A stretch of 33,835 nt of DNA from Candidatus Eiseniibacteriota bacterium. Lineage in GTDB: Bacteria > Eisenbacteria > RBG-16-71-46 > JACRLI01. Below are positions 24,983-32,354 of the stretch, in pieces. The notes below the pieces were generated by a model. The model worked only from the letters and a program-made list of their open reading frames with translations, was not told the origin of the DNA and did not search any database. Each line of letters opens with the position of its first letter. The stretch's first letter is position 1. Where the stretch lies: contig JANXVU010000163.1 in assembly GCA_025351485.1 (NCBI GenBank), forward strand, positions 1-33,835, written 5' to 3'. The position numbers and the translations under genes are program-made.

Positions 24983-25025
24983 TAACCCGCAAGGGGATTT
25001 GCCGACTCTCGAAGGAGCCACCACT

Positions 25026-26282
25026 GTGCATTTGAAATCGAGCCGCGAAAAGAACCGTTCGAACGCCGCCCAGGCGGGTTTCGTGCTGATGTATGTCATG
25101 TACGTGGTGCTCGCCGTTGGCCTGTTCATCGCCGGCGCGACCGTGTTCATGAGCAATTCCATCCACCGCTCCAGAGTCGAACTCCGGCGCAACGGGCAGG
25201 TCATGAACGTGGCCCGCGCCGGGCTCGCCGACGCCGTGAACTGGTTCAAGTCGCGGGCCACCCAGCCGGTCCGCAGCAACGGGACCAGCTACAGCTTTCC
25301 GGACCAGGCCTTCGAGCCGCTCAGCGACGTCGATCCCAAGAAGAATTACACCATCGACGAAAGCATCGGGATCGTGAAGGAATACGCCATCACCGATGAC
25401 AATCTTCTGTGGGCGCGCTACGAAGTGAAGAAGCAGGTGGACGACAACTCGTCTGATCCTTCCCAGACCGACACCTCCGCCGTGCACGACATTTCCCACG
25501 AGCTGGCCCGCGGCAGCGCCGGCGAGGGCCTGGCCTGGTACGTCCAGAGCCAGGCTTACGTGTACGTGAGGCGCGACGAGAACGCCGCCTACAACGTCGC
25601 GCCCAACCAGGTCATCGAAAGCCTGGCCATGGCCGAGGAAATTCTGGCCATCAGCATCAAGCGCCCGGCGGAGTCCGCCATCATCTGCGGGAAGGCGTCC
25701 GCGATTAGCATCGGCAGTAACGCCCGGATCACCGGCATGCCCAACGGGTTCGCCGTTACCTATCTCGCAGGCACCGGCACGCCGAGCCCGTCCGCGGCGC
25801 CCGCTTCGGTGACCGGATCGCCCTCGGCCTACCTGAGCCTGCCGGACACGATGTACTTCGACGACTGCCACAGCGTCTTCGGAGTGACCCAGGCGGAGCT
25901 CAAGTCGCTGGCCAGCATCAGCGTGAGCAGCGTGGCGGGACTCCCCTCGGCCATGCCCAGCATGGCGGTCATCTACATCAACGGAAACGCGACCTTCACC
26001 CCGAGCCGGCCGCTTGCCGGGGGCGGGATCCTGTTCGTGAACGGCGACCTGACCATCCAGGCCAACTCGAACGCCCTGTTCTCGGGATTCGTCTATGTCA
26101 CCGGCCGGGTGTACCAGTACGCCCCTTCGCTGATTTCAGGGATGGTGTTCGCCCACAACGGCTACACCATCAGCGGAGCGAACGACGTGTCCCAGGTGGA
26201 GTACAGCCCCAGCGTACTGAACACCGTCCGCAACCAGCTCTGCCAGTACCAGGAGGCAAAGGCCCCTTATGTCGTCCACTAA
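25026..26282 (+). CDS. PilX-like minor pseudopilin/pilus-assembly protein with N-terminal TM helix
   Basis: GTG start preceded by AAGGAG; AAQAGFVLMYVMYVVLAVGLFIAGATVFMSNSIHRSRVELRRNGQVMNVARAGLADAVNWF resembles PilX N-termini; C-terminal INGNATFTPSRPLAGGGILFVNGDLTIQANSNALFSGFVYVTGRVYQ looks like a beta-helical region. Confidence 0.75.
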   Translation: MHLKSSREKNRSNAAQAGFVLMYVMYVVLAVGLFIAGATVFMSNSIHRSRVELRRNGQVMNVARAGLADAVNWFKSRATQPVRSNGTSYSFPDQAFEPLSDVDPKKNYTIDESIGIVKEYAITDDNLLWARYEVKKQVDDNSSDPSQTDTSAVHDISHELARGSAGEGLAWYVQSQAYVYVRRDENAAYNVAPNQVIESLAMAEEILAISIKRPAESAIICGKASAISIGSNARITGMPNGFAVTYLAGTGTPSPSAAPASVTGSPSAYLSLPDTMYFDDCHSVFGVTQAELKSLASISVSSVAGLPSAMPSMAVIYINGNATFTPSRPLAGGGILFVNGDLTIQANSNALFSGFVYVTGRVYQYAPSLISGMVFAHNGYTISGANDVSQVEYSPSVLNTVRNQLCQYQEAKAPYVVH

Positions 26283-29200
26283 ACGTTTCCAGGCGCGTGA
26301 GCGCGGGTTCACCTTTGTCGAAGTCCTGATCAGCTCGGTGGTGCTGTCCATCGTCGTGCTGGCGGCCGTCACCTACCAGACGTCGTCGCACCGCGCCAAC
26401 AACAAGTTGAAAGACCGGGCTTTCGCGACCCAGCGGGCCATCCAGATGATGGAGGAGCTGCGCGGCTACGTGAACGGTGGCCTTGAAACCAACATCGACG
26501 TGCTGGACGGCTACGACGACGGCGCGGTGTTCACCGACGTGCTCACCACCGACAAGAAAGTCTCCAACCCGGCCGACGCCCTGAGCGGAAACGTCACCTT
26601 CAACGGTGGCTGGAAGTTCATCCGCCGCGTCAGCGTGCGCCGCCTGCCCGAGGCACCCAACGCGCGCTGGGTGCAGGTGCGGGTCTACTACGCCAACGGC
26701 GGGGACGTCACCAAGCAGGGTGAATCCCTGGCCGAAGTCACGTCGATCTTGAAAACCGTGGGAAACGTGAGCGTGCCCACCCAGTCCCTCGACGTCTACA
26801 TCCTGGCGCTGGAAAACGTGCCGGGGTGGTGGTCGAACCTGGCCACGCTCCGCCCGATGTTCGACAACAGCATCACCGACCTGGAAAGCCGCAACCCGGG
26901 CCTGGAGATCCGCCGTCACTGGATCACCCGCGTGGCCTACGGACGCGACCCGTTCTACACGCCCCACGTGAACGTGGCCGCCAACGCCAACGCCAGCTCG
27001 ATCGGCCAGGTGTACTTCTACCCGGGCATGCTGGACCTGGCCAACAACAAGAAGTACTACGAGCCGGCCAACATGACCGGCCGCATCAACCTGGACGGGA
27101 CCGTCACCAACGCGAACTCGACCACGGATCCCAGCACCGGCTACACCACCACCCCGTACTCGCTGGCGGACAACTGGAACCACGGCATGCGCTACCCGGA
27201 AGAAGTGGCCAAGTACAACGCGGCCCTGGCGCTGGACCCGAACCTGGAGCCCAGCCTGCGGATGCTGCTGGAAGAGATGAACACCAATCCAAGCAAGTAC
27301 ACCAACGCGCTGGTGGTGAACCTGCACGGAGAGCTGCTGCCGCTGCCCCCGATGAGGAACTTCTCCGACCCGGCCAAGGATCCGCGTCCGTCGGTCTCGG
27401 GCGGGCTCCCTTACGTGCGGGCCGTCACGCACCCCGAGCGTCTCTATTACGCCGGCGGCGACTCGGTCGCGCTGCGCGTGTACACGTTCCTTAGTAACCC
27501 GGGCGCGGTGGGCGTGCCGAGCACGGCGCACGCGTTCGTGGTCCTGAAAAACGTGTCGAGCAACGTGACCATCGATTCCGTGCTGCAGCTGGATGCCGCC
27601 GACAGCGTGTGGGTCAACCATCCGACCTTCTCCAGCACCAGCGGCTCCGACATCGTGATCGATCTGCCGAGCAGCAAGCTGAGCCGCACCCAGCTGCCGA
27701 CCAAGCGCGGCCTGCCCACCACCAAGCGCCTTTACGGCATGGACTACATTCCCTGCCCGATCGGCGGCAACTTCCTCAAGGACCTTCGGGACAACGGAGC
27801 CACCGCGCGCCCCAAGAACACCGCCGAATGGCGCATCAAGATGCACTACACCGGCAATGGCATGCTGACCGTCGAGACCCGCCTTGGGGATCCGGTGCTC
27901 AACACGCCGTGGAGCGACTACCCGAACCTCTCCCGCACCTACACCTGGATCGGGACGGCGACCCCGCCGCTCACCGAGCGCTACCAGTTCATGGGCGATC
28001 CGAGGCACTCTCCGTACGCCGATGTGTTCCAGTACTTTGGCTACAACTGGTACTTCGCATCGGTGGACACCAACGACTACAAGAAGATGTACAAGACCGT
28101 CAACGGCTGGGGCTCCTCCGGGAGCCAGCCGGACATCGACATTCCGCGCTACTTCTCGATGTGGCGTAAGGCCATGCTCAGCAGCACGTCGCTGTGGACC
28201 AACATGACCGGCTTCTCCTTCTACTACATCGGCCTGGGCGGCGAGTTCGGGGCGGATGCCTCCAACGGCTACGGCAGCGGCCTGCCCATTTCGGGCGACC
28301 CGTGGAACCTGAACGGCTCCCAGAACGTGGACGAAATCACCAACGGCGCCTCGGTCACCAACTGCCGCATCCCGGCCAAGATCGACCTGACCTGGTATTC
28401 CAAGCCGTGGCTGGGCGAACTCTACCCGGACGACTACTACACCGTGGGCTCCGGCGCGGGCTGGGACACCAAGGGCAACCTGCCCACCGGCGCGGGCAAC
28501 TACTACCGGGCTCCGTACAACTTCGCCGGGACTCCGTTCGCCTACCAGCGCCAGCACCGGACCGCTGCCCCGGGATGCGCTTCGCTGTTCAACGGCAAGG
28601 GCTCGGGCAGCACCGGGCCGTTCCGCCACGAGTACCGCGACAATGACATGGCCAGCATCACCAGCAACGGGCTCAACCTGTCCGGGCGGTTCAACCTGGG
28701 TCTCCCGTCGTCCATGTCCGCGTCCCGTCCGTTTACGTTGAATTACAACAGCACCTGGCCAGTGGAGTGGAACGACACGGCCTACGTCAACACGCGCACC
28801 ACCACCGCCTTCTTCCAGGGCTACTACGACGCGCCGTACTCGGCCAGCTACCGCTCCAGCGCCAGCGTCAGGCTGACCCAGGGCGGGAAGACCGCGTACT
28901 TCATGATGAACGGCCTTTCGCCGCAGACCTCGAGCGGTTCGGCCTGGATGGCCCGCTACGCCCTGGTGAGCATGGTGCAGTCGTTCATGGACGCGGGCGA
29001 TCCCTCCTATGCCGGCTGGCTGCCGCAGCTGCCGCGGGTGCAGGTGGTGACCCCCGACCCGAACGACGACATCACCGACCCGACCAGCCTGAGCGTCACA
29101 TGGAACACCGACTGGAAGCGCTGGGACCTGCAGAATTACAACATCCCGGGATACACCCCGACCGCGGTGGCGATGCACTATGTGATGAAGTTCTCGAACG

Positions 29201-29433
29201 ACGGCGGCCGGACCTGGAAGTACGTGGATGACAACTCCACGGCCGAGGCCGGGGTGCGCCCGGTGGACAGCAACGGCAACGACCTGCACACGGTCTCCCA
29301 GCCGTTCGCGTGGGATGTTTCAGCGCTGGCCCGCGGCACGTACATCATCCGCCTGGAGGCCTATCGCCAGAGCACGCACCTGCACTACTCGTATCACCAG
29401 GTGCAGATCTACATCAAACGGACGGTGTCGTGA
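26269..29433 (+). CDS. Giant type IV prepilin-like protein (1054 aa; PilV-like N-terminus)
   Basis: Class III signal/N-methylation motif RERG|FTFVEVLISSVVLSIVVLAAVTYQTSSHR, then about 1000 aa of aromatic- and Asn/Gly/Ser-rich sequence; C-terminal beta-sandwich-like segment (YVMKFSNDGGRTWKYVDDNS...GTYIIRLEAYRQSTHLHYSYHQVQIYI). Confidence 0.85.
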   Translation: MSSTKRFQARERGFTFVEVLISSVVLSIVVLAAVTYQTSSHRANNKLKDRAFATQRAIQMMEELRGYVNGGLETNIDVLDGYDDGAVFTDVLTTDKKVSNPADALSGNVTFNGGWKFIRRVSVRRLPEAPNARWVQVRVYYANGGDVTKQGESLAEVTSILKTVGNVSVPTQSLDVYILALENVPGWWSNLATLRPMFDNSITDLESRNPGLEIRRHWITRVAYGRDPFYTPHVNVAANANASSIGQVYFYPGMLDLANNKKYYEPANMTGRINLDGTVTNANSTTDPSTGYTTTPYSLADNWNHGMRYPEEVAKYNAALALDPNLEPSLRMLLEEMNTNPSKYTNALVVNLHGELLPLPPMRNFSDPAKDPRPSVSGGLPYVRAVTHPERLYYAGGDSVALRVYTFLSNPGAVGVPSTAHAFVVLKNVSSNVTIDSVLQLDAADSVWVNHPTFSSTSGSDIVIDLPSSKLSRTQLPTKRGLPTTKRLYGMDYIPCPIGGNFLKDLRDNGATARPKNTAEWRIKMHYTGNGMLTVETRLGDPVLNTPWSDYPNLSRTYTWIGTATPPLTERYQFMGDPRHSPYADVFQYFGYNWYFASVDTNDYKKMYKTVNGWGSSGSQPDIDIPRYFSMWRKAMLSSTSLWTNMTGFSFYYIGLGGEFGADASNGYGSGLPISGDPWNLNGSQNVDEITNGASVTNCRIPAKIDLTWYSKPWLGELYPDDYYTVGSGAGWDTKGNLPTGAGNYYRAPYNFAGTPFAYQRQHRTAAPGCASLFNGKGSGSTGPFRHEYRDNDMASITSNGLNLSGRFNLGLPSSMSASRPFTLNYNSTWPVEWNDTAYVNTRTTTAFFQGYYDAPYSASYRSSASVRLTQGGKTAYFMMNGLSPQTSSGSAWMARYALVSMVQSFMDAGDPSYAGWLPQLPRVQVVTPDPNDDITDPTSLSVTWNTDWKRWDLQNYNIPGYTPTAVAMHYVMKFSNDGGRTWKYVDDNSTAEAGVRPVDSNGNDLHTVSQPFAWDVSALARGTYIIRLEAYRQSTHLHYSYHQVQIYIKRTVS

Positions 29434-30440
29434 TGAAAGCACTTCGAGCGGAAGCGCGCGCGGCCTTCCCCGGCGGGAACCGGGGATTCAGCCTGATCGA
29501 ACTCATGGCGGTGTGCATCGCGATGTCGGTGATCATGGGCACGAGCATCGCCGTGTTCACCCACAGCGTGAAGGTGGGCGTGCAGCTGGAGTCCAGCGAC
29601 AACTTGAAGAACTACGGGCAGTTCGCCGTGAACGCCGCGAAGCTGCCGCTGCAGCAGTCGCGCGCGCTGTTCCAGGACGACGCCTACGGCCAGGCGCTGT
29701 GGGGACAAATGACCTGGTCGGGACACACCCCGATCAGCGGCACCAAGCTGCCGATCATCCGGGAAACCGGATCGCTCTCCCCCAGCGAGATCGGGGATGC
29801 CACGTCCCCGTTCGACTCCACCGCCGTGGGCAACGCGCTTCTCTTTACCGAATCCCTGGGTCACATCAGCGCGGGCGGCTACTGGATCGACCTGTACCGC
29901 CTGCGCGGCTACTACCTGTCCAGGTCCGACTCGGTGAAGATGATGGGCAAGAGCTATGCGTACGACCTGATCGAGTGGGTCGGGCCCACCTACCTGGACT
30001 ACACGGAAATGGCCGCCGCGCCCGTGGGGGTATTCTCGTCCGCGGTGGCCCAGGGTTTCACCCGGGCCTGGAATTCCGTGGCGACCACCAAGGACAGCAC
30101 CGTGTGGGATGTGGACGCGAGCGGAGGCCTCACGCGCGAGGCCAGCCCGGTCCTGGCCCCGGTCAACAGCCATAGCGCCACCCACGTCTTCGGGAACGGT
30201 GGCGACACCCGCTACGCGGTGGCCTTCAATGCCGTGGCCCACTATCCGATCCAGGACGTGGTCCCGGCGTACGGCAGCGCCCGCTCCTCCGGGGCCGGGT
30301 TCCCGAACGGGTTCGAGGCCATGGTGGTAGGCCCCACAGGCGGCCGCAAAATCCTGATACGCCTGGTCATGGTGGCCGAGGGCTATGGTGGGAGGTACTC
30401 CATGGCCAATACCGTGATCGCCTCCTCAAGAAACTTCTAG
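29433..30440 (+). CDS. Type IV prepilin-like protein (PilW-like)
   Basis: GGNRG|FSLIELMAVCIAMSVIMGTSIAVFTHSVKVGVQLESSDN; ATG at 29433 overlaps the preceding stop (TGATG). Confidence 0.88.
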   Translation: MKALRAEARAAFPGGNRGFSLIELMAVCIAMSVIMGTSIAVFTHSVKVGVQLESSDNLKNYGQFAVNAAKLPLQQSRALFQDDAYGQALWGQMTWSGHTPISGTKLPIIRETGSLSPSEIGDATSPFDSTAVGNALLFTESLGHISAGGYWIDLYRLRGYYLSRSDSVKMMGKSYAYDLIEWVGPTYLDYTEMAAAPVGVFSSAVAQGFTRAWNSVATTKDSTVWDVDASGGLTREASPVLAPVNSHSATHVFGNGGDTRYAVAFNAVAHYPIQDVVPAYGSARSSGAGFPNGFEAMVVGPTGGRKILIRLVMVAEGYGGRYSMANTVIASSRNF

Positions 30441-30481: not shown

Positions 30482-30518
30482 CCCGAACGGGCGCGGAACT
30501 GATCCGCGCCCGTTCGGG
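30482..30518 (+). terminator. Long perfect hairpin at end of pseudopilin operon (probable terminator)
   Basis: CCCGAACGGGCGCGGA-ACTGA-TCCGCGCCCGTTCGGG, 16-bp perfect stem, followed by TATTTGAGTTTG (weak T-tract). Confidence 0.65.
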
Positions 30519-30705: not shown

Positions 30706-31401
30706 ATGATCACCCGCTTCGGGCTCGCCAAGAGCCGCATCGTCATCATGGGAAGCGCCCTTGCGCTTCTCACCTCCGGCTGCGCCACCAAAGGGTTCGT
30801 CCGTAACTTCGTGGAAAGCCAGGTCGCTCCCCAGCGTGACGCCACCGCGCGCCTGCAGGGCGAACTGGCCACGGTCAAGACCACGGCGGACTCCGCCGAT
30901 GCGCACGCGACAGCCGCCCAACTCATGGCGCGCAACGCGTTCGAGGAAGCCGCGGCCTCCCGCCGGCTCGCCTCCAAGATCGCCAGCGGCGACCTGACCT
31001 ACAAGGTGGTCCAGACCAACGAGATCAACTTTGGCTACGACCAGTTTAACCTGAACACCAAGGGCCGCAAGGCACTCGACCAGGTGGCCGGCGTGCTGGA
31101 GCAGCACCCGCGCTGGATCCTGGAGATCATGGGCGCCACCGACCGCTCCGGGAGCCCTCGCTACAACCTGCGCCTGGGCCAGGAACGCGCCGAGACCGTC
31201 CGACGCTACCTTAACGACGAGCACAAGGTTCCGCTCTCCAAGATGGCCACCATCTCCTTCGGAGCCGGCCGTCCGGTGGCCCGAGGCGAGGGCAAGGCCG
31301 CCGAAGCGAAGAACCGCCGCGCGGTGATCAGGGTGCTCGAAGTGCAGGACGTGGACCTAGTGTCCATGTCCGGCTCCCCGGAAGGCGCCAACATCCACTA
31401 G
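30706..31401 (+). CDS. OmpA/Pal-like peptidoglycan-associated lipoprotein
   Basis: Lipobox ALLTSGCATKG; OmpA C-terminal domain NEINFGYDQFNLNTKGRKALDQVAGVLEQHPRWILEIMGATDRSGSPRYNLRLGQERAETVRRYL...EAKNRRAVIRVLE; AAAGGAGTGACCAGG before ATG 30706. Confidence 0.92.
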   Translation: MITRFGLAKSRIVIMGSALALLTSGCATKGFVRNFVESQVAPQRDATARLQGELATVKTTADSADAHATAAQLMARNAFEEAAASRRLASKIASGDLTYKVVQTNEINFGYDQFNLNTKGRKALDQVAGVLEQHPRWILEIMGATDRSGSPRYNLRLGQERAETVRRYLNDEHKVPLSKMATISFGAGRPVARGEGKAAEAKNRRAVIRVLEVQDVDLVSMSGSPEGANIH

Positions 31402-32242
31402 GCTCTGTCTGAAAACAGAATTCGAAGGTATCGCTCGATGAAGGCGAGATGAATCATCGCCAGGAAGTTCACCGCCAGTTTCTCGAACCGCGTGCCCAGT
31501 CGGCGGCATTCCTTGAGCCAGCCGTTGCATTGCTCGATTGTGCAACGCTTGCGGTAGGTCTTCTTGTCGAACCGGTGCCGGCCGTCTTCGGGATGCTGGT
31601 CCGCTCGGTACGGAATTACGGCCTGAATGGCATGCCGACGAAGCCAACTGCGAATGCGCGCGTAGCTGAAGCCCTTGTCTCCGGCCACCGAACCCGGCCG
31701 CGTGCGCGGCGCCCCCACCGACTGGCGGATCTTCACTCGGTTGATGACCGTTTCGAACTGCGTCGACTCGTGGACCTGGCCCGCCGTGACGTGGGCGGCG
31801 AGGGGAATTCCGTGACCTTCAGCAACCAGGTGGAGCTTGCTCCCGAATCCGCCGCGCGAGCGACCCAGTGCGTGGTCTCGGGGCTCTTTGGGCCCCCCTT
31901 TTTCCCAGCCCCTGCGGCCGCCCGGGAGGCGCGGATGTTCGAGCCATCCACGCAAAACAGATCCCAGTCGATATGGCCCTCGGCATCGAGGCGGATCTGG
32001 AGCGCCTCCAATACCTTGTCGAAGACGCCTTCTCGGCGCCAGGAGTTGAAGTGTTCGTAAACCGTCTGCCACGGACCGTAGCGCTCCGGCAAATCGCGCC
32101 ATGGGGAGCCGCTTCGCAGCAGCCAGAAGATCGCATTCCACATCTGGCGCGGTGGGCGACGGGGTCGGCCGGTCAAGGCCGGGGGGGGGATCTGGGGCGT
32201 GATCAACGCCCATTCCTGATCCGAGAGTTCGTAGCGACGCAT
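31398..32242 (-). CDS. IS5-family transposase, two overlapping frames joined by predicted -1 frameshift near 31892-31903
   Basis: Frame A: MRRYELSDQEWALITPQIPPP...NAIFWLLRSGSPWRDLPERYGPWQTVYEHFNSWRREGVFDKVLEALQ...FCVDGSNIRASRAAAGAGKKGG; frame B: GWEKGGPKEPRDHALGRSRGGFGSKLHLVAEGHGIPLAAHVTAGQVHESTQFE...VAGDKGFSYARIRSWLRR...CTIEQCNGWLKECRRLGTRFEKLAVNFLAMIHLAFIERYLR. Slippery run GGGAAAAAGGGGGGC at the junction. Confidence 0.9.
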
Positions 32243-32320
32243 CCTTGCTGCCCTCCAGTTCCGCACTTCCTTGGCGGACTGGCAGGAGCTTATACCTTCA
32301 ACCCGTTTTCAGACAGAGCC
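31401..32320. mobile_element. IS5-family insertion sequence (IS427-like), 920 bp, 16-bp perfect terminal inverted repeats, TA (CTAG) flanks
   Basis: Left end GGCTCTGTCTGAAAAC (31401-31416), right end GTTTTCAGACAGAGCC (32305-32320); flanked by TA on both sides (cTA|GG...CC|TAg); encloses a two-frame transposase. Confidence 0.92.
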
Positions 32321-32354
32321 TAGTCGCTCGCAGCTTCGAATCGTCCGTTGCAAG

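What the first reader, a model, noticed from the sequence alone, without database searches (positions are those of the whole stretch)
25026..30440. Three-gene pseudopilin operon with a giant 1054-aa prepilin
Seen: three tightly overlapping plus-strand genes. One has a PilX-like N-terminal helix, the next a class III prepilin motif (RERGFTFVEVL) followed by about 1000 residues, the last a PilW-like motif (GFSLIELMAVC). Established: minor pilins are usually about 150-400 aa; PilV/W/X-type proteins with PilY1 form pilus tips. Inference: the giant protein may be a fused tip adhesin substituting for PilY1, or a surface appendage subunit of a type II/IV-like system. The PilX-like protein also carries a C-terminal beta-helix-like segment. 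No assembly ATPase, platform protein or prepilin peptidase is in the window.
Basis: partly seen in the sequence, partly recalled or inferred. Interest (0 to 1): 0.68.

Follow-up and report, generated by a model that had tools for sequence, protein, structure and literature searches.

The report
Giant pilus-tip protein in three-gene cassette
Three adjacent bacterial genes, kept together in the same order in several distantly related bacterial groups, encode pilus-building proteins, one of which carries a very large, previously unclassified attachment that is most likely displayed at the tip of hair-like surface fibres to grip or act on something outside the cell.

Summary
Three overlapping plus-strand genes (25026-26282, 26269-29433, 29433-30440) end at a strong terminator-like hairpin and encode type IV minor pilins: PilX/GspK-like, PilV/GspI-like (1054 aa) and PilW/GspJ-like. 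They form a conserved cassette: all three genes, same order, recur in Elusimicrobiota (giant gene in 18 of 341 genomes), UBP14 and further families outside the host phylum, but in only 1 of 47 genomes of the host's own phylum. The cassettes follow the tip-complex rule: X lacks Glu5, V and W keep it. The ~890-residue part of the giant protein beyond its pilin matches no Pfam, NCBIfam or PDB family, yet is better conserved than its pilin helix. It also occurs alone behind an apparent signal peptide, and relatives carry PA14 or CBM35-like domains inserted in it. The host encodes PilB/T/C, prepilin peptidase and secretin elsewhere but no detectable PilY1. Best reading: a modular minor pilin in an X-V-W tip complex displaying a large effector module, probably an adhesin. 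Whether the module binds or cuts its target is undetermined; its structure prediction failed. New variant of a known kind (modular pilins).

The parts
25011..25017 (+). Ribosome-binding site GAAGGAG before P1
   Evidence: read directly
25026..26282 (+). P1, PilX/GspK-like minor pilin, 418 aa; leader 18 aa, no Glu at mature position 5 (Tyr), C-terminal beta-helix
26269..29433 (+). P2, giant PilV/GspI-like modular minor pilin, 1054 aa
26269..26307 (+). P2 prepilin leader (13 aa, ends in Gly; then FTFVE with Glu5)
   Evidence: sequence; N_methyl E=4.9e-6
26308..26763 (+). P2 pilin moiety, residues 14 to about 165
   Evidence: pilin-less homologue in L070 aligns from profile position about 157
26764..27393 (+). 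P2 module core, residues 166-375, most conserved region (51% mean pairwise identity)
27394..27708 (+). P2 variable region, residues 376-480, predicted beta-rich at low confidence; relatives carry PA14 (after residue 412) or a CBM35-like insert (after residue 477) here
27709..29013 (+). P2 module, residues 481-915, conserved, fold unknown
29014..29430 (+). P2 C-terminal domain, residues 916-1054, predicted beta-rich (pLDDT to 78), Asp-box-like motif at residues 976-983
29433..30440 (+). P3, PilW/GspJ-like minor pilin, 335 aa, Glu5 present
30482..30518 (+). Terminator-like hairpin (16 pairs, 13 GC) ending the operon
   Evidence: number of such sites in the region is no higher than in shuffles, but this is by far the strongest stem

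Best explanation
The three genes encode a set of minor pilins that caps a type IV filament. P1 (K/PilX type, no Glu5, with its own beta-helix) is inferred to be the outermost subunit; P3 (J/PilW type) and P2 (I/PilV type) sit with it, and the set starts filament assembly. P2 carries a ~99-kDa module after its pilin moiety. When the filament is extended by the PilB/PilC/secretin machinery encoded elsewhere, the module is displayed at the tip and works as a built-in effector, most likely an adhesin for a glycan or other polymer, doing the job that the separately secreted PilY1 does in other diderms. Shown: the genes, their conserved order, the Glu5 pattern, the separable module, the inserts, the machinery, and the missing PilY1 hit. 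Inferred: tip position, assembly by this machinery, and ligand binding.
For: Same three genes in the same order in Elusimicrobiota, UBP14 and other families. Glu5 absent in 22/22 P1 homologues and present in 23/23 P2 and 20/20 P3 homologues, as reported for PilX/GspK against the other minor pilins (PMC7541494). Profiles of P1, P2 and P3 hit PilX-, PilV- and PilW-like genes beside PilY1 in relatives of the host. Module is separable. PA14 inserted in three relatives (best E 3e-24) and a CBM35-like insert in UBP14 (E 0.0037). Host encodes PilB, PilT, PilC, PilA-like pilins, prepilin peptidase and secretin. No PilY1 in the host, although the same search rings in 6 of 47 genomes of the class. Precedent: S. 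sanguinis PilB and PilC modular pilins in a PilY1-less tip complex.
Against: No confident structure of the module (pLDDT 38). The module is highly conserved, whereas adhesins often diverge. P2 itself has neither the PA14 nor the CBM35 insert. The H/FimU subunit is not in the cassette. No experiment or co-localisation evidence. Lack of PilY1 is common in the sampled phyla, so it is weak support.
Confidence: 0.6

Rival explanations
1. The module is an enzyme (for example one that cuts a glycan or peptide) carried at the filament tip, not primarily an adhesin.
For: 74 invariant residues in 20 proteins, many polar (R, D, N, E, K); core residues 166-375 are 51% identical on average against 31% for the pilin helix. 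A free, apparently secreted form exists. Carbohydrate-binding modules are common on glycan-active enzymes.
Against: No match to any enzyme family in Pfam, NCBIfam or the PDB; no catalytic motif recognised.
Confidence: 0.22
2. The set belongs to a secretion pseudopilus (type II secretion-like), where P2 pushes or selects exported substrates and never leaves the envelope.
For: GspI/GspJ/GspK-like resemblance; a second PilB/PilC/pilin/secretin set exists on contig C46.
Against: PilT retraction ATPase and a PilB scoring over its T4aP cut-off are present; a ~99-kDa module is much larger than the extra domain described for GspK; GspC/L/M were not searched.
Confidence: 0.1
3. The cassette serves DNA uptake, like the beta-solenoid pilin ComZ at the tip of Thermus competence pili.
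For: P1 has a beta-helix and ComZ is a tip pilin with a beta-solenoid (PMC6561018).
Against: No sequence or fold match of P1 to a ComZ structure among the matches shown; the P2 module is near neutral (net charge about -3), not obviously basic.
Confidence: 0.05
4. The cassette is a degenerate or recently arrived passenger without function in this host.
For: Only 1 of 47 genomes of the phylum has it; an IS element with perfect 20-nt ends lies about 1 kb downstream.
Against: All three genes intact; codon GC matches the host; invariant residues, overlaps and terminator are intact.
Confidence: 0.03

Closest known systems
[quoted passage not shown]
   Same: Pilin moiety followed by a bulky effector module; several minor pilins thought to form a tip complex; no PilY1
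   Different: Different, much larger module (~890 aa) of unknown family, on a PilV/GspI-like pilin, in a fixed X-V-W cassette of diderm lineages
FimU/PilV/PilW/PilX + PilY1 priming and tip complex of type IVa pili (PMC7541494)
   Same: PilX-like without Glu5, PilV- and PilW-like with Glu5, operon arrangement; the module is about the size of an adhesin
   Different: No PilY1 and no FimU in the cassette; the large effector is fused to the PilV-like subunit
GspH/I/J/K minor pseudopilins of type II secretion
   Same: I, J and K types, K without Glu5 and with an extra domain
   Different: The extra module sits on I, is far larger, and the H subunit is absent from the cassette
ComZ of Thermus thermophilus (PMC6561018)
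   Same: Tip-associated pilin with a beta-solenoid, as in P1
   Different: No detectable sequence or fold match; the giant partner P2 has no counterpart there
PilV tip adhesins of IncI plasmid pili (for example PMC9045228)
   Same: Minor pilin that acts as a tip adhesin by its C-terminal part
   Different: Plasmid-borne type IVb pili with DNA shuffling of the C-terminus; not tested here for homology

Membership tests
Modular type IV pilins | N-terminal class III prepilin signal and hydrophobic helix | tested here: met
   N_methyl E=4.9e-6 in P2, and matched in 19 of 21 family members, of which one is the pilin-less form
Modular type IV pilins | Extra C-terminal module separable from the pilin moiety | tested here: met
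   Pilin-less homologues in L070 and L066
Modular type IV pilins | Module acts directly in a pilus function | not testable with these tools
   needs experiment
I-J-K (PilV-PilW-PilX) tip complex | K/X subunit lacks Glu5, I/V and J/W have it | tested here: met
   22/22, 23/23, 20/20, and the window's own proteins
I-J-K (PilV-PilW-PilX) tip complex | Sequence kinship to PilX, PilV and PilW | tested here: met
   Profiles hit the corresponding genes beside PilY1 in L087 (and similar pilins in L088) with E 1e-6 to 3e-7, N-terminal parts only; PilV TIGR02523 E=6.6e-8
I-J-K (PilV-PilW-PilX) tip complex | H/FimU subunit in the same set | tested here: not met
   Not in the cassette; a GspH-like pilin lies on contig C102
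I-J-K (PilV-PilW-PilX) tip complex | Location at the filament tip | not testable with these tools
   inferred only
PilY1 adhesins | C-terminal PilY1 beta-propeller domain (PF05567) | tested here: not met
   No PF05567 match in P1, P2 or P3 nor in the genome
Type II secretion pseudopilins | GspC/L/M inner-membrane partners in the genome | not tested
ComZ-like beta-solenoid pilins | Fold match of P1 to ComZ | tested here: not met
   Top matches are ice-binding-protein beta-helices, E>=0.05; no ComZ in the 50 rows shown
Verru_Chthon cassette (TIGR02596, TIGR02599) | Match above cut-off | tested here: not met
   12-16 bits for the window proteins against cut-offs of 70-256

The most novel reading that the evidence does not exclude
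The ~890-residue module is a new fold with one strongly conserved task (possibly catalytic) on a polymer met by unrelated bacteria, spread as a portable three-gene tip cassette that different type IV pilus machines can load, alongside a free secreted form of the same module.
Probability: 0.2. Interest if true: 0.75.

Novelty: new variant of a known kind. Interest (0 to 1): 0.5.

Why it matters
It would add a large, uncharacterised effector family to type IV pilus tips in diderm bacteria without PilY1, and a conserved three-gene unit with which to test whether tip complexes are interchangeable cassettes. It also gives a concrete target for structural work: one module conserved across several phyla, found in nature both fused to a pilin and free.

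Tried and rejected
AlphaFold2 of P2 with a 6-sequence alignment gave pLDDT 38, so no fold search was run on it. PDB and Pfam searches with single proteins and with a 21-member profile found only the pilin helix and weak Asp-box hits. A ComZ-like DNA receptor is not supported. Verru_Chthon cassette membership is not met. A viral origin: no relative in viral contigs. Recent transfer into the host: GC and codon pattern match the host; the tree pairs the host with UBP14 (SH-aLRT 97, long branches, no root), so direction and age of any transfer are undetermined. General replacement of PilY1 in Elusimicrobiota: rejected, since the cassette is in about 5% of genomes and PilY1 is missing almost everywhere. 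A caspase/C25-like reading of the conserved NLHGE motif was considered and dropped because no conserved Cys follows.

Full report
Observation. The window holds three overlapping plus-strand genes at the stated coordinates: P1 25026-26282, P2 26269-29433 and P3 29433-30440. P1 follows a GAAGGAG ribosome-binding site, and a 16-pair terminator-like hairpin lies at 30482-30518, before an OmpA-like gene, so the three look like one transcription unit. Codon-position GC is typical of real genes here (P2 0.54/0.48/0.91). The 1039-aa minus-strand ORF opposite P2 is a shadow.

What the proteins are. P2 carries Pfam N_methyl (E=4.9e-6) and PilV/GspI-like N-terminal matches; nothing in Pfam, NCBIfam or the PDB matches its remaining ~890 residues. 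A 21-member profile adds only weak Asp-box hits. P1 and P3 have little in the libraries, but profiles built from their homologues hit the PilX-like and PilW-like genes beside PilY1 in a genome of the host's own order (L087), and the P2 profile hits the PilV-like gene there (N-terminal parts only, E 1e-6 to 3e-7 over L087 and L088). AlphaFold2 of P1 (pLDDT 68) gives a long helix, a pilin-like sheet and a well-predicted C-terminal beta-helix; its nearest solved folds are ice-binding-protein beta-helices, but not significantly (E 0.05 at best, TM under 0.45).

Conservation of the cassette. The first scans found homologues of P2 in UBP14 and in four Elusimicrobiota genomes, each flanked by full-length homologues of P1 and P3 in the same order. 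Whole-genome searches found P2 in 18 of 341 Elusimicrobiota, in 3 of 17 genomes of the UBP14 group, and in 8 of a sample of 385 genomes around the host (the host included), which fall in six families by the tool's labels. In two of the larger searches only two first-look candidates per genome were scored, so those counts are lower bounds. In the host phylum it is 1 of 47. Where contigs are long enough the order is X-V-W, sometimes in tandem (G394, G068, G502).

Tip-complex signature. At mature position 5, 22/22 P1 homologues lack glutamate (I, L, M, T or V) and the window's own P1 has Tyr; 23/23 P2 and 20/20 P3 homologues have Glu. This is the pattern reported for PilX and GspK, proposed top subunits of the T4aP priming complex and of the T2SS pseudopilus (PMC7541494). 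H/FimU is missing from the cassette; the host has a GspH-like pilin on contig C102.

The module. It is separable: in two Elusimicrobiota genomes a fourth gene after W encodes the module alone, beginning at about profile position 155, preceded by what reads as a signal peptide (by eye). It is unusually conserved: mean pairwise identity 42%, core residues 166-375 51%, against 31% for the pilin helix, with 74 invariant residues in 20 proteins. Relatives carry carbohydrate-binding domains within it: PA14 at the same point (after P2 residue 412) in three proteins, best E 3e-24, and a CBM35-like insert (E=0.0037, below the curated cut-off) after residue 477 in UBP14. P2 itself has neither. The C-terminal segment has a weak Asp-box-like motif. 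AlphaFold2 of P2 failed (pLDDT 38).

Host machinery. The genome (98.6% complete, 186 contigs) encodes PilB, PilT, PilC and three PilA-like pilins on C27, a second PilB/PilC/pilin/secretin set on C46, a minor pilin trio on C102, and prepilin peptidase and a secretin on C6, with a PilM-like ORF and further ORFs between them read by eye. PilY1 (PF05567) is not found in the host, although the same search finds it in 6 of 47 genomes of the class, nor in five cassette genomes, nor above cut-off in any of 341 Elusimicrobiota.

Mechanism. Most likely P1, P3 and P2 form a tip/priming complex and P2 displays its module on extended pili, as S. sanguinis does with modular PilB and PilC in the absence of PilY1 (PMC8179133, PMC9934059). 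Genes, order, Glu5 pattern, module boundary, inserts and machinery are shown; tip location, assembly and ligand are inferred. Adhesion is favoured by the carbohydrate-binding inserts of relatives and by precedent; enzymatic action is the main rival because of the conservation. The cassette is not the general stand-in for PilY1, since most PilY1-less genomes lack it.

Novelty. Modular pilins are known: more than 1,200 proteins in 264 architectures, and the authors expect more with undefined modules (PMC8179133). New here are the module family, its size (P2 1054 aa; relatives up to 1536), its seat on a V/I-type pilin, and the X-V-W cassette in distant phyla. No paper in the held library was found that describes it, but that library is partial. 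Hence new variant of a known kind, interest 0.5.

Noticed in passing
window 31397-32324: An insertion sequence with perfect 20-nt inverted ends; its transposase-like reading frame is split over two overlapping minus-strand frames (31398-32213 and 31733-32266).
   Followed up: partly
window 26170-29289 (minus): A 1039-aa antisense ORF opposite P2, a GC-rich shadow that an automatic annotation could take for a gene.
   Followed up: yes
L070 4221-7136 (minus), L066 8443-9903: A fourth gene after the cassette encodes the giant module without a pilin, behind an apparent signal peptide (L066 copy is cut by the contig end).
   Followed up: yes
L059 10071-12671 (minus): A second large prepilin-like protein (866 aa, GFTLIEVMVM) in another minor pilin cluster next to the cassette, so other giant modular pilins exist in these genomes.
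   Followed up: no
L024 13154-13750, L026 10898-11527: In two Elusimicrobia the gene after the cassette encodes a small membrane protein that looks like a HAMP-domain protein (by eye).
   Followed up: no
G000 contig C46 (L020 5457-15136): A second PilB/PilC/pilin/secretin set in the host genome, apart from the PilB/PilT/PilC set on C27.
   Followed up: partly
window 25677-26205 (P1 C-terminal part): The predicted beta-helix of P1 has ice-binding-protein (DUF3494-type) folds as nearest but non-significant matches (E 0.05).
   Followed up: partly
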